From: Blastocatellia bacterium
GTDB taxonomy: Bacteria > Acidobacteriota > Blastocatellia > HR10 > J050
DNA length: 44,256 nucleotides
Direction of reading: 5' to 3'
Assembly (NCBI GenBank): GCA_026985075.1
Contig: JALSQX010000046.1
Location: 1-44,256 of the forward strand
In this document: positions 30,041-43,842 of the stretch, piece by piece
How the letters are laid out: every line of letters begins with the position of its first letter
Numbering within the stretch: the first letter of the stretch is position 1
Made by a program: the position numbers and the translations under genes
Notes under the pieces: model-generated
Database searches by the model: none
What the model was told of the DNA's origin: nothing
Seen by the model: only the letters and a program-made list of their open reading frames with translations

Positions 30041-30460
30041 CGCAGGGAGAAGCGGAGCAATCGCCGGAGGCGAGTTCTGGGACCTACAGGGAAGCCCTCG
30101 TCGGCAGAGAGACGTCGGTCCGGGAGCTCGCCCCAGAGGCTTCTTCCCGCGGAAAAACTCCGCGGCTGGTCAGGGGGGAGGCATCAGGCTTCGTGTTATC
30201 AGGGAGGAGCGGAGCTATCCCCGGAGACCAGCTCCGGGGCCTGCAGAGTGGTGGCGGGCGACCGGTTGACTAGCTGATGAATGTCACGGACCCCGGAGAC
30301 CAGCTCTGGGGCTTGCCGGGAAGCCCCGCAGCTCGCCCGCGGGGAGCCGTCAGTTGTCAGCGAGTGGAGAGGAAGCAATATCTCTGGGAAGCCCCGCAGC
30401 TCGCCCGCGGGGAGCCGTCACGTTCCCTCCTACCGAGCGAGAAGCCTCACCAGGAATCCG
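30041..30460. repeat. Hairpin-repeat cluster, copies in the + orientation
   Basis: The 634-bp gap 29958-30591 has no gene but holds several copies of the 70-bp hairpin repeat seen at 41.7-42.1 kb. Two copies start at 30320 and 30388, each with arms CCCCGCAG and CCGCGGGG around loop ctcgc; a diverged copy is at 30091-30160. Two more hairpins have arms CCCCGGAG and CTCCGGGG (or CTCTGGGG) around loop accag, at 30219-30239 and 30291-30311. The stretch 30277-30345 is nearly identical to 41653-41720, 11 kb away. Confidence 0.75.
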
Positions 30461-36289: not shown

Positions 36290-36520
36290 CATGCCCAGGC
36301 TCTTTGGTGACAACGGAAGTACCGTGCTCGTCACCGGGGATCGTTACTTCCCCGCTCCACGAGCTCCCAACTGACTCCTCCCCGTCGACGAGCGGCGGGG
36401 CCTCCCGGAGAGGAGGAGCGGCCCTCTGAACTAGCCGGCAACCTGACATCTCCCCGCCCACCGGCCGCGGGGGTCCCCTCAGGGAGGGCGTCGCTCCCTC
36501 TCCACACAGTGCGCGCATGG
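36290..36520 (-). repeat. Hairpin-repeat copies, inverted orientation
   Basis: Within the 481-bp gap 36198-36678, two copies of the 70-bp hairpin repeat lie on the minus strand. The clearer one has + strand arms CCCCGTCG (36380-36387) and CGGCGGGG (36393-36400) around loop acgag, the same arms as the third copy at 41840. Its minus-strand flank reads GTCAGTTGGGAGCTCGT, matching the GTCAGTTGGCAGCTCGT of the main array. The second, more diverged copy lies near 36440-36480. The rest of the gap holds only the promoter at 36612-36640. Confidence 0.7.
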
Positions 36521-41579: not shown

Positions 41580-42165
41580 GGTCGGAGCGCCACCATTCCC
41601 GGAGGCGAGTTCCGGAGCCTTCGGGGGATGAGCGAGGCATCAGGCGAGCAGCTCACGAACGTCACGGATCCCGGAGACCAGCTCCGGGGCTTGCGAGAAG
41701 CCCCCGCAGCTCGCCAACAGGGAGCACTCACGTTGGCAGCTCGTTTGAGAGGCTCATCCCTCCAACCTGGAAGCCCCACAGCTTGTCTGTGGGGAGCCGT
41801 CAGTTAGCAGCCGGTCCAGACGCTTCCTCCCCCCTCTAGGAAACCCCGTCGCTCGTCGGCGGGGCACTCACGTTGCCAGCTCGTTTGAGAGGCTCATCCC
41901 TCCAACCTGGGGGCCCCACAGCTTGTCTGTGGGGAGCCGTCAGTTGGCAGCTCGTTTAAGAGGCCATCCCTTCACCCTGGAGGCCCCACAGCTTGTCTGT
42001 GGGGAGCCGTCAGTTGGCAGCTCGTTTGAGAGGCCATCCCTTCACCCTGGGAAGCCCCGCGGCTGGTCCGCGGGGAGCCGTTAGTTGAGAGCTAATTGAG
42101 CGAGGAGCGTCACCATCCCCGGAGCACGGAGGCTCCAAGCGTCAGTGGCTCGCCAGCGTGGGGAA
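41580..42165 (+). repeat. Tandem 70-bp hairpin-repeat array
   Basis: The 768-bp gap 41437-42204 is filled mainly by six tandem units with starts at 41697, 41770, 41840, 41910, 41980 and 42051 (period 70-73). Each unit begins GAAGCCCC or GAGGCCCC and includes an 8-bp stem with a 5-base loop, then a conserved GCCGTCAGTTGGCAGCTCGT segment. Arms differ but keep pairing: CCCCACAG with CTGTGGGG (41774-41794), CCCCGTCG with CGGCGGGG (41844-41864, one wobble), CCCCGCGG with CCGCGGGG (42055-42075). An additional hairpin with loop accag is at 41669-41689, and diverged flanks reach 41580 and 42165. No open frame explains it. Confidence 0.85.
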
Positions 42166-42204: not shown

Positions 42205-42846
42205 TCAGGCGATGAATGCTTCATCCCGCCCTAAAAGGATATCAAAGAACTGCTCTATATTCGCTCGCTTCTCGTTCATGAACGTCAAATACCAACTATA
42301 CTGCTTTTGAACACATTCTTCCAAAACCTCTTTTGTTATCACCACTTCTACTGTCTTGGGATAGACACACCTCCGCAATTCAGCAAGAGTTGATTCCATG
42401 CCTTCCTCTCGTTCCCACCACGATATCAGGAATCCCGCCAGAGGGCGGCTTTGCCCCTGGTATCTCACTTGCTCTGCCAACAACCACGCGAAATCCCAGA
42501 CTCGGTCAGAAAAAGGCGAAGGATAAAGCTCTTGTACCCAATTCTTGGCTTCCCAAAGCCAATAGGCACCGTCGCGAACAAACACTCCATCTGGAATGGC
42601 GTACGTCCCTTTCGCCTGTGGGCGGTTGAGTTGGTTTAGCAGACGCTCGTGGTTTTGAGTCAGAGGCTTTAGAGGGGGCACAATATCGGCCCAAAAAACT
42701 CGTGGCTTTCCAGGGAGCACCTGATAATCTTTATGGGCAAAATATGCCCGCAACAGGTCTTCATAAAACTTGGCGAATAGGAAGACCCGCATGCCACCAG
42801 AATTGTTACGAGAAAAGAGCGTATCTAAAGAACGCACAGTAGTCAT
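42205..42846 (-). CDS. Cassette-borne protein, candidate PD-(D/E)XK nuclease
   Basis: A 213-residue protein whose family I do not recognise by name. Residues 84-101 (IPDGVFVRDGAYWLWEAK) fit the PD-(D/E)XK active site: D86, then E99-A-K101 on the next strand. An N-terminal helix with an acidic residue (FAKFYEDLLRAYF) fits the first helix of that fold. The rest is alpha/beta with conserved-looking tryptophans. The ATG at 42846 lies just after an attC-like site; the open TTG at 42864 lies inside that site and is unlikely. Base composition is intermediate between the chromosome and the TIR cassette. It is the last cassette of the array; no attC-like site follows its stop. Confidence 0.6.
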   Translation of the reverse strand: MTTVRSLDTLFSRNNSGGMRVFLFAKFYEDLLRAYFAHKDYQVLPGKPRVFWADIVPPLKPLTQNHERLLNQLNRPQAKGTYAIPDGVFVRDGAYWLWEAKNWVQELYPSPFSDRVWDFAWLLAEQVRYQGQSRPLAGFLISWWEREEGMESTLAELRRCVYPKTVEVVITKEVLEECVQKQYSWYLTFMNEKRANIEQFFDILLGRDEAFIA

Positions 42847-42858
42847 CCCCGGCTTGGC

Positions 42859-42941
42859 TGGCAACCGAGCTCACCTGCCGCTATGGCGGCAAGGTTGAAG
42901 GCCGCAGCGACACTGCCGTTCAGTGCAGCGTTTTGTTAGCC
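42859..42941 (-). other. attC-like recombination site 2
   Basis: Read on the minus strand, GGCTAAC (42935-42941) starts 5 bases after the TIR gene stop and the site ends with GTTGCCA (42859-42865). The interior contains the typical CTGCACTGAACGGC block and a stem CGCTGCGGC with GCCGC and AGCG separated by a bulged CAT, as expected of attC extrahelical bases. R'' and R' are imperfect matches to RYYYAAC and GTTRRRY. Confidence 0.65.
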
Positions 42942-42946
42942 GGTCT

Positions 42947-43423
42947 CTATTTGACTCTCTGTTGTGCCCGTTTATAGGCTTCCTCAACCCAGGTTCCCAG
43001 ATTATTATAACCATCATCATTAACCCAATCGTATGTTCTGATACCTTTATAGCCGAGAGCTTTGAAAGGGTCATTACCCTTACAGTCCCGTTTCCCGTTT
43101 TTATCTTTAAGATTGTGAATGTATACTCCAATTAATCCGTTACCCCTTTCCCAGCTATGATTAATCTCATATTGAACATATTTTCTCTTTGCTGTCTCAG
43201 TTCCAATCAAAGCAACAGTTACTGACGTACCGTTCATTTGATCCCGAATCCATTTCTTAATAGCATCATCTCCTTTTTTCTTGACTTCTTCCCACTCCGC
43301 AGCGTCCCAAAATCCAGCGGCTTCTCTATCCGGTTTGGTTACCCAGCTATTCCGAACTCGGCTGGCCCTCCATATATCTCTTTCATAGTGAAAACTAAAA
43401 AATACTCTACGTGCCATTTTCAT
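42947..43423 (-). CDS. TIR-like domain protein (ThsB/MTH538, DUF1863 type)
   Basis: A 158-residue single-domain protein. The opening ARRVFFSFHYERDIWRASRVRNSW, VTVALIGTETAKRKYVQYEI and GNGLIGVYIHNLKD are hallmarks of the ThsB/MTH538 TIR-like family. The glutamate in QYEI is the candidate catalytic residue. Known relatives in Thoeris make a cyclic or histidine-linked ADP-ribose signal after phage infection, which opens or activates a partner effector. The start ATG 43423 has AAAGGA 5 bases upstream; the frame also has ATG 43429, overlapping the previous stop in ATGA. It is AT-rich (near 40% G+C) and coupled to the membrane protein at 43426. Confidence 0.85.
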   Translation of the reverse strand: MKMARRVFFSFHYERDIWRASRVRNSWVTKPDREAAGFWDAAEWEEVKKKGDDAIKKWIRDQMNGTSVTVALIGTETAKRKYVQYEINHSWERGNGLIGVYIHNLKDKNGKRDCKGNDPFKALGYKGIRTYDWVNDDGYNNLGTWVEEAYKRAQQRVK

Positions 43424-43425
43424 TG

Positions 43426-43842
43426 TCATCCTTTGGTTGATAAGATGGCTATGAGTGTTACAATTACGATTGCTCCCAATATCGTGCCGTGAAATATGAT
43501 AAGTGTTTTAGAGAAGATAACCTTTATCCATGGCGCTACTTTGTCCTTCACGATAGAGGTATCCATTGAGAAGTCTATATCTTCGTCTTTCATACTCCTT
43601 ACATGATCGTATAACGCTCTAAAGAGTCGCTCCTGCCATAAGAAATAACCATCCAGTATCCAAAAAGCTGTTGCAGGGAAATATGCTAGATAAACAAAAA
43701 GTATTTTAAGATTGCTGGCTGCAAGAGCAAACAATGCAGAAACTAAAACTACACTCCACCCTTTAAGTAGAAAAGAATTTTGAGAGAGTCTATTTACAAT
43801 TCCTTGTATCATTTCAAGGTGCGATAATTTCTTCTCTATCAT
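43426..43842 (-). CDS. Small three-helix membrane protein, putative effector of the TIR module
   Basis: A 138-residue protein with hydrophobic segments at about residues 27-45, 48-68 and 110-135. The N-terminus KKLSHLEMIQGIVNRLSQNSFLLKGW and the central WQERLFRALYDHVR are amphipathic and look like conserved features of a family often found beside DUF1863 TIR proteins (from memory, not searched). There is no Macro or other enzymatic domain. The ATG at 43842 has AGAGGAAG upstream and lies 20 bases after an attC-like site. Its TGA overlaps the next gene's possible start. As the partner of a TIR-like enzyme, it is probably a membrane-disrupting effector. Confidence 0.75.
   Translation of the reverse strand: MIEKKLSHLEMIQGIVNRLSQNSFLLKGWSVVLVSALFALAASNLKILFVYLAYFPATAFWILDGYFLWQERLFRALYDHVRSMKDEDIDFSMDTSIVKDKVAPWIKVIFSKTLIIFHGTILGAIVIVTLIAILSTKG

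What the first reader, a model, noticed from the sequence alone, without database searches (positions are those of the whole stretch)
41697..42120. 70-bp repeats whose hairpin arms covary
Six tandem units keep an 8-bp stem and a 5-base loop while the arm sequences change on both sides (CCCCACAG/CTGTGGGG, CCCCGCGG/CCGCGGGG, CCCCGTCG/CGGCGGGG). Paired changes mean the structure, in RNA or cruciform DNA, is under selection. The conserved flank GCCGTCAGTTGGCAGCTCGT is a second signal. It is neither CRISPR (no unique spacers) nor an obvious REP/BIME.
Basis: partly seen in the sequence, partly recalled or inferred. Interest (0 to 1): 0.7.

Follow-up and report, generated by a model that had tools for sequence, protein, structure and literature searches.

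The report
Jumping hairpin arrays, fused split-site transposase
The 70-bp hairpin repeats are one of many copies of a bacterial 'REP'-type mobile repeat, and the genome's single likely mover is an unusual transposase made of two fused halves, one half keeping only the catalytic tyrosine and the other keeping only the metal-binding histidines.

Summary
The six units lie in one of many intergenic arrays. The genome holds about 458 matches to the hairpin core, against 8 for the reversed pattern. Stem arms covary genome-wide even when the variable stem positions are left free. Units occur in direct and inverted orientation with a fixed grammar, are almost never inside ORFs, and change between two congeneric genomes.

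Two features go beyond an ordinary REP. (1) The tetranucleotide 5' of each hairpin pairs with a T-N-A site 3' of it (GA/TC, AA/TT, CA/TG; 90% of copies), the guide/cleavage rule of IS200/IS605 transposon ends. (2) The only Y1 transposase in the genome sits among the arrays and fuses two TnpA domains. In 15-16 homologues the first domain keeps Tyr and Gln but has lost HUH; the second keeps HUH but has lost Gln, and usually Tyr. That leaves one composite active site per chain. Homologues sit beside their own hairpin arrays with a period of about 70 bp.

Best reading: a REP-like system derived from IS200/IS605, dispersed by a single-chain pseudo-dimeric TnpA. Activity is inferred, not shown.

The parts
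41697..41744 (+). unit 1, decayed: stem 41702-41709 / 41715-41722 pairs 5 of 8; TCAC at 41728-41731
41770..41815 (+). unit 2, type A: guide GAAG 41770-41773; stem 41774-41781 / 41787-41794; TCAG 41800-41803
41840..41884 (+). unit 3, type A: guide GAAA; stem CCCCGTCG 41844-41851 / CGGCGGGG 41857-41864 (one G-T); TCAC 41868-41871
41910..41955 (+). unit 4, type A: foot changed to GGGG; stem 41914-41921 / 41927-41934; TCAG 41940-41943
41980..42025 (+). unit 5, type A: guide GAGG; stem 41984-41991 / 41997-42004; TCAG 42010-42013
42051..42096 (+). unit 6, type A: guide GAAG 42051-42054; stem CCCCGCGG 42055-42062 / CCGCGGGG 42068-42075; TTAG 42081-42084
30155..30424 (.). second array of the same family in the window: type A units on + (30320, 30388), type B units on - (30243, 30315), plus a weaker + copy (30155)
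36359..36472 (-). third array in the window, two type A units, in the gap between the YifB-like and S9-peptidase genes

Best explanation
The repeat is a REP/BIME-type array whose units are derived from the hairpin ends of IS200/IS605-family transposons. Each unit of about 46 bp has (i) a guide tetranucleotide (GAAG, AAAG or CAAG), (ii) an 8-bp hairpin with loop CTNGN, (iii) two bases after the stem that track the guide, (iv) a T-N-A cleavage-like site 4-5 nt after the stem, and (v) a CTAG/CTAC box; linkers of 20-26 nt give the 70-bp period. Proposed mechanism: when the strand is single-stranded, for instance on the lagging-strand template, the hairpin folds, the transposase binds it, and guide/site base pairing places T-N-A in the active site. 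Tyrosine cleavage and rejoining with another unit's cut end then adds, removes or disperses units. The proposed enzyme is the 286-aa fused TnpA encoded at G000:C95:24052-24909. Its N-terminal domain supplies Tyr115 and Gln119 and its C-terminal domain supplies His200 and His202, giving one composite (trans-type) active site in one chain. Shown here: repeat anatomy, covariation, guide/site pairing, genome-wide dispersal, rapid turnover between congeners, linkage to the fused TnpA in several genomes, and complementary loss of catalytic residues. Inferred: cleavage, mobility, and use of this TnpA on these units.
For: Dispersal: 458 core matches in G000 and 100 in congener G007, against 8 and 6 reversed-control matches, none in same-family G008; only 12 of 340 hairpins fall in ORFs of 250 aa or more although such ORFs cover 67% of the stretches. 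Arm covariation. Guide/site pairing: first guide base complementary to the second site base in 352 of 393 copies (expected 171, maximum of 2000 shuffles 196), and 54 of 58 in G007. The second base after the stem tracks the guide (G with AG, A with AT, C with TC). Type B1 (AAAG, TTAC, AT) has the same letters as the left end of IS608 (guide AAAG, site TTAC, triplet bases A42 T43; PMC5934647). Enzyme: two Y1_Tnp domains in one ORF, flanked by arrays; homologues in other genomes lie beside hairpin arrays of 64-72 bp period that occur 13-228 times per genome against 0 reversed-control matches. Residues: N-domain HUH 0/15, N-domain Tyr+Gln 15/15, C-domain HUH 16/16, C-domain Tyr 2/15, C-domain Gln 0/15; N-domains and C-domains each form one clade (0.865, 0.992). 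The HUH half of the solved transposase 2f4f aligns best to the C-domain and its Tyr half to the N-domain. Both halves match ISDra2/IS608 TnpA in fold (Z 14.5 for residues 8-123, Z 12.5 for 142-271). IS608 TnpA builds its site in trans, Tyr from one monomer and HUH from the other (PMC5934647); the metal-binding Gln sits four residues after Tyr (PMC6006769). Turnover: orthologous intergenic arrays in G000 and G007 differ in unit composition.
Against: The guide/site rule rests on essentially three subfamilies in G000 (A, B1, B2), so the copies are not independent events. The fourth guide/site pair is not kept in type A (TCAG 123, TCAC 68 copies). In related genomes only the first two guide bases fit (AAT.../TTCA). 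G007 has about 100 units but no detectable fused TnpA; its assembly has 480 contigs, some ending in arrays, so loss and assembly gap cannot be told apart. The exact mobile unit could not be mapped: copy boundaries scatter, and the one clean unit gain/loss is also explained by recombination between repeats. No coordinates were available to measure the distance between Tyr115 and His200/202. The G000 protein and one homologue retain a Tyr in the C-domain.
Confidence: 0.75

Rival explanations
1. The hairpins are RNA elements (terminators, mRNA stabilisers or attenuators) and selection acts on RNA structure; the transposase is incidental.
For: GC-rich hairpins between genes; arm covariation fits RNA as well as DNA.
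Against: Pairing extends outside the stem to a guide/site pair known from single-strand DNA transposition. Homologous fused TnpAs sit beside arrays with entirely different stems but the same spacing. Units lie on both strands within one intergenic gap and arrays turn over between congeners. No Rfam family matches.
Confidence: 0.12
2. The arrays are decaying tandem duplications kept uniform by recombination and slippage, with palindromes corrected by template switching; no dedicated transposase acts now.
For: Unit gain/loss breakpoints lie inside repeats; paired arm changes can arise by hairpin-templated repair; G007 has units without a detectable TnpA.
Against: Dispersal to dozens of unrelated intergenic sites needs mobility. 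The guide/site pairing lies outside the palindrome. The fused TnpA keeps a full set of catalytic residues over deep divergence.
Confidence: 0.12
3. A different IS200/IS605-type transposase, not the fused protein, moves the units.
For: G007 lacks a detectable fused TnpA.
Against: The fused gene is the only Y1_Tnp found in G000, with both matches in one ORF, and the linkage to arrays recurs in several genomes.
Confidence: 0.06
4. CRISPR or integron attC arrays.
For: Repeat period and variable linkers (186 distinct of 206).
Against: Units occur in direct and inverted orientation with fixed grammar; linkers are pyrimidine-rich and only 20-26 nt; no cas genes among the window genes examined; the attC core GTTRRRY is not present in the consensus flank (GTTGGCA).
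Confidence: 0.01

Closest known systems
REP/BIME sequences with RAYT (TnpA_REP) transposases (PMC2817692, PMC8266576, PMC6006769)
   Same: High-copy extragenic hairpins with a 5' tetranucleotide, inverted-pair and tandem arrays, one linked HUH-Y1 transposase gene flanked by the repeats.
   Different: Foot is GAAG/AAAG/CAAG, not GTAG or CGTC; the transposase is a two-domain fusion with the class 1 motif Y---Q instead of a single domain with Y---NP; the site is T-N-A, not CT.
IS200/IS605 ends and TnpA (IS608, ISDra2) (PMC5934647)
   Same: Fold of both TnpA halves, Y---Q plus HUH chemistry, guide tetranucleotide paired to a T-N-A-type site, bases after the stem matching the triplet positions; type B1 letters equal those of the IS608 left end.
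   Different: No discrete LE-gene-RE element was seen; one tnpA copy against hundreds of units; the two monomers are fused and have divided the active site between them.
TnpA_Y1 class 3 of Quentin et al. 2018 (PMC6006769)
   Same: Found in Acidobacteria among others, associated with high-copy hairpins (about 600 in Solibacter), described as intermediate between IS and REP.
   Different: Class 3 has Y----Q, a CnGA foot and a profile of 155 aa; here Y---Q, XAAG foot, and two domains in about 280 aa.
PATEs (palindrome-associated transposable elements; PMC7290912)
   Same: Non-autonomous elements made of IS200/IS605 palindromic ends and thought to be moved in trans.
   Different: PATEs carry a left and a right end as one element; here single-hairpin units form 70-bp-period arrays in hundreds of copies.

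Membership tests
REP/BIME | short palindromic hairpin with a conserved 5' tetranucleotide | tested here: met
   8-bp stem, 5-nt loop, foot GAAG/AAAG/CAAG in most copies
REP/BIME | high copy number in extragenic sites | tested here: met
   458 core matches against 8 control; 12 of 340 inside ORFs of 250 aa or more
REP/BIME | BIME: inverted pairs with regular spacing | tested here: met
   A facing B1 at 61 bp, B2 back to back with A at 33 bp, A-A and B2-B1 about 71 bp
REP/BIME | foot is GTAG or CGTC | tested here: not met
   foot counts
RAYT (TnpA_REP, class 2) | single-domain protein with HUH and Y---NP | tested here: not met
   two domains, Y---Q; NCBIfam REP_Tyr_transpos 44 bits, below its cut-off of 80; transpos_IS200 120.6 bits, above its cut-off of 55
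IS200/IS605 | TnpA with HUH and Y---Q | tested here: met
   present as a composite over two domains; fold matches
IS200/IS605 | guide tetranucleotide complementary to a cleavage tetranucleotide | tested here: met
   352/393 and 54/58 for the first pair; the fourth pair is not kept in type A
IS200/IS605 | separate TnpA monomers forming a homodimer | tested here: not met
   fused domains with unequal catalytic residues
IS200/IS605 | discrete mobile element (LE, gene, RE) cleaved and moved as ssDNA | not testable with these tools
   one gene copy flanked by arrays; mobility needs an experiment
TnpA_Y1 class 3 | Y----Q and CnGA foot | tested here: not met
   Y---Q in 15 of 15; foot XAAG
CRISPR array | direct repeats all in one orientation with unique spacers | tested here: not met
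   units in both orientations within arrays; pyrimidine-rich 20-26 nt linkers
integron attC | GTTRRRY/RYYYAAC cores and an IntI integrase | tested here: inconclusive
   consensus flank GTTGGCA does not fit GTTRRRY; six phage-integrase-family hits in the genome were not typed

The most novel reading that the evidence does not exclude
A further origin of a REP system, separate from RAYTs: an IS200/IS605 transposase became a single-chain pseudo-dimer by fusion. Its two halves then lost complementary parts of the active site, so that each chain has exactly one composite site. It now disperses REP-like units that still use the IS605 DNA-guide code. The one-site state of E. coli TnpA_REP, described as a monomer, would have been reached by another route.
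Probability: 0.6. Interest if true: 0.75.

Novelty: new variant of a known kind. Interest (0 to 1): 0.62.

Why it matters
IS608-type transposition is modelled with two trans active sites that work at two ends at once. A natural enzyme with one composite site per chain, fixed over several bacterial families, lets one ask whether REP dispersal needs only one cleavage at a time, and why transposons give rise to REP systems. The repeats also give hundreds of natural guide/site pairs to test the DNA-guide code. For annotation, these arrays would otherwise be read as RNA structures or tandem repeats of unknown kind.

Tried and rejected
Rfam on the window: no match. Mapping the mobile unit by copy boundaries: left edge clusters at the guide (-4 to -6), right edge spreads from the T-N-A site to the CTAG box, so the unit stays unresolved. 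Empty-site comparison with G007: arrays are rearranged too much for clean empty sites, apart from one unit gain/loss. Literature on tandem or fused Y1 domains: nothing found in the open-access library; subscription journals are not covered. Whether AlphaFold places Tyr115 near His200/202 could not be measured because coordinates are not returned.

Full report
1. The observation. The array at 41697-42120 is real: period 70, 5.2 copies, six units by profile. Five of six units have the 8-bp stem and 5-nt loop; the first is decayed (5 of 8 pairs). Three stem types with paired changes occur in the window. The same family also lies at 30155-30424 and 36359-36472 of the window. In the whole assembly (5.2 Mb, 105 contigs; the window is all of contig C46) the core pattern GCCCCNNNGCTNGNCNNNGGGG with up to one mismatch occurs 458 times, against 8 for the reversed pattern; in a congeneric genome (G007) 100 against 6; in a same-family genome of another genus none. 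With the inner stem positions left free, pairing is far above shuffles. On an alignment of 58 copies, most of them chosen to be non-redundant, 96.7% of pair cells are standard (shuffles 86.4%), and 56 cells have changes on both sides (shuffles 15); sliding the partner by one column destroys the pairing.

2. Anatomy. An independent hairpin scan of the fetched stretches showed three subfamilies: A (GAAG, stem mostly GCGG/GCCG/GCAG/ACGG inside, AG after the stem, then TCAG or TCAC), B1 (AAAG, stem GGAG, AT, TTAC) and B2 (CAAG, stem GGAG, TC, TGAC). The first base of the 5' tetranucleotide is complementary to the second base of the 3' site in 352 of 393 copies (171 expected if independent) and in 54 of 58 in G007. 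The second base after the stem tracks the same pair. In IS608 the guide AAAG pairs with TTAC (A16 with T-3, A17 with T-4), and these pairs form triplets with T43 and A42 just after the stem; the right end uses GAAT with TCAA (PMC5934647). Type B1 has exactly the IS608 left-end letters. Caution: three subfamilies amount to about three independent events, and the fourth base pair is not kept in type A.

3. Array grammar. Same-strand neighbours are mostly spaced 68-74 bp. B2 precedes B1 on the same strand 47 times against 2. A faces B1 with hairpin centres 61 bp apart, and B2 stands back to back with A at 33 bp. This is BIME-like. Linkers are mostly 20-26 nt, C+T rich, and 186 of 206 are distinct. 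Hairpins avoid long ORFs (12 of 340 inside, ORF coverage 67%). Orthologous intergenic arrays in G000 and G007 (flanks mostly about 85-93% identical) differ in number and type of units.

4. The enzyme. The genome's only Y1_Tnp matches are two domains of one 286-aa ORF at C95:24052-24909, with array units on both sides of it on that contig. It scores as IS200/IS605 transposase (120.6 bits, cut-off 55) and below the cut-off as REP_Tyr (44 against 80). Full-length or split homologues occur in G345, G267 (two), G509 (three or four), G481, G472, G471, G484 and, more distantly, G180. At least eight of them lie beside hairpin arrays of 64-72 bp period with their own stems, and those hairpins are dispersed in their genomes (112 in G267, 205 in G345, 228 in G509, 17 in G481, 13 in G472; reversed controls 0). 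A few of the G267 matches belong to a different palindrome.

5. The split active site. N-domain HUH is intact in 0 of 15 and N-domain Tyr plus Gln in 15 of 15; C-domain HUH in 16 of 16, C-domain Tyr in 2 of 15 and C-domain Gln in 0 of 15. N-domains form one clade and C-domains another, so one ancestral fusion is the simplest history. A profile of the fused family aligns the HUH half of the solved transposase 2f4f to the C-domain and its Tyr half to the N-domain. An AlphaFold model (mean pLDDT 77.9, pTM 0.78, six sequences) matches ISDra2/IS608 TnpA twice, over residues 8-123 (Z 14.5) and 142-271 (Z 12.5). IS608 TnpA already assembles each site in trans from two monomers (PMC5934647), and the Gln four residues after Tyr is the third metal ligand (PMC6006769). 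The fused protein therefore keeps one of the two trans sites and has lost the other.

6. Mechanism. Most likely the units are REP-like derivatives of IS200/IS605 ends, moved on single-stranded DNA by the fused TnpA using the guide code. Shown: anatomy, covariation, dispersal, turnover, linkage and residue pattern. Inferred: binding, cleavage, transfer, lagging-strand use, and that this enzyme rather than another acts on these units. The mobile unit is not mapped. G007 has the repeats but no detectable gene.

7. Relation to known systems. It works like a REP/BIME-RAYT system but fails the RAYT definition (Y---NP, GTAG foot). It uses the IS200/IS605 code and residues but is not a discrete IS with a homodimeric TnpA. 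It differs from class 3 TnpA (Y----Q, CnGA foot; PMC6006769). No description of a fused Y1 transposase with divided catalytic residues was found in the open library; that is weak evidence of novelty. I therefore call it a new variant of a known kind.

Noticed in passing
window 42947-43842 (-): A ThsB/PDC-M50B TIR-like gene with a PDC-M50A membrane-protein gene (PADLOC hits 1e-68 and 5e-53), a candidate defence pair close to the array.
   Followed up: partly
L142:20-4867 against window 42205-43842: In congener G007 one flank of the orthologous array is conserved but the far side holds a 1615-aa DEAD-helicase with an MZB domain instead of the TIR pair; the array may mark the edge of a variable island.
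   Followed up: partly
L060:6621-9032 (G000:C44): 803-aa fusion of reverse transcriptase and Cas1 with a group II maturase-like domain.
   Followed up: no
L053:2010-2470 (G000:C102): Another short repeat (GTCACAGTGCTCGGGATGGGTTCATCTCGCCCCGGAGG), at least two copies, absent at the same place in G007.
   Followed up: no
G267 contigs C1 and C2: A second palindrome family built on CCAACTTCAGTTGG, separate from the array-type hairpins.
   Followed up: no
L121 and L127 (G471:C169), L111 (G472:C165), L125 (G267:C3): Several fused-TnpA homologues are split between the two domains or inside one by a frame change; this could be decay, assembly error or programmed frameshifting.
   Followed up: no
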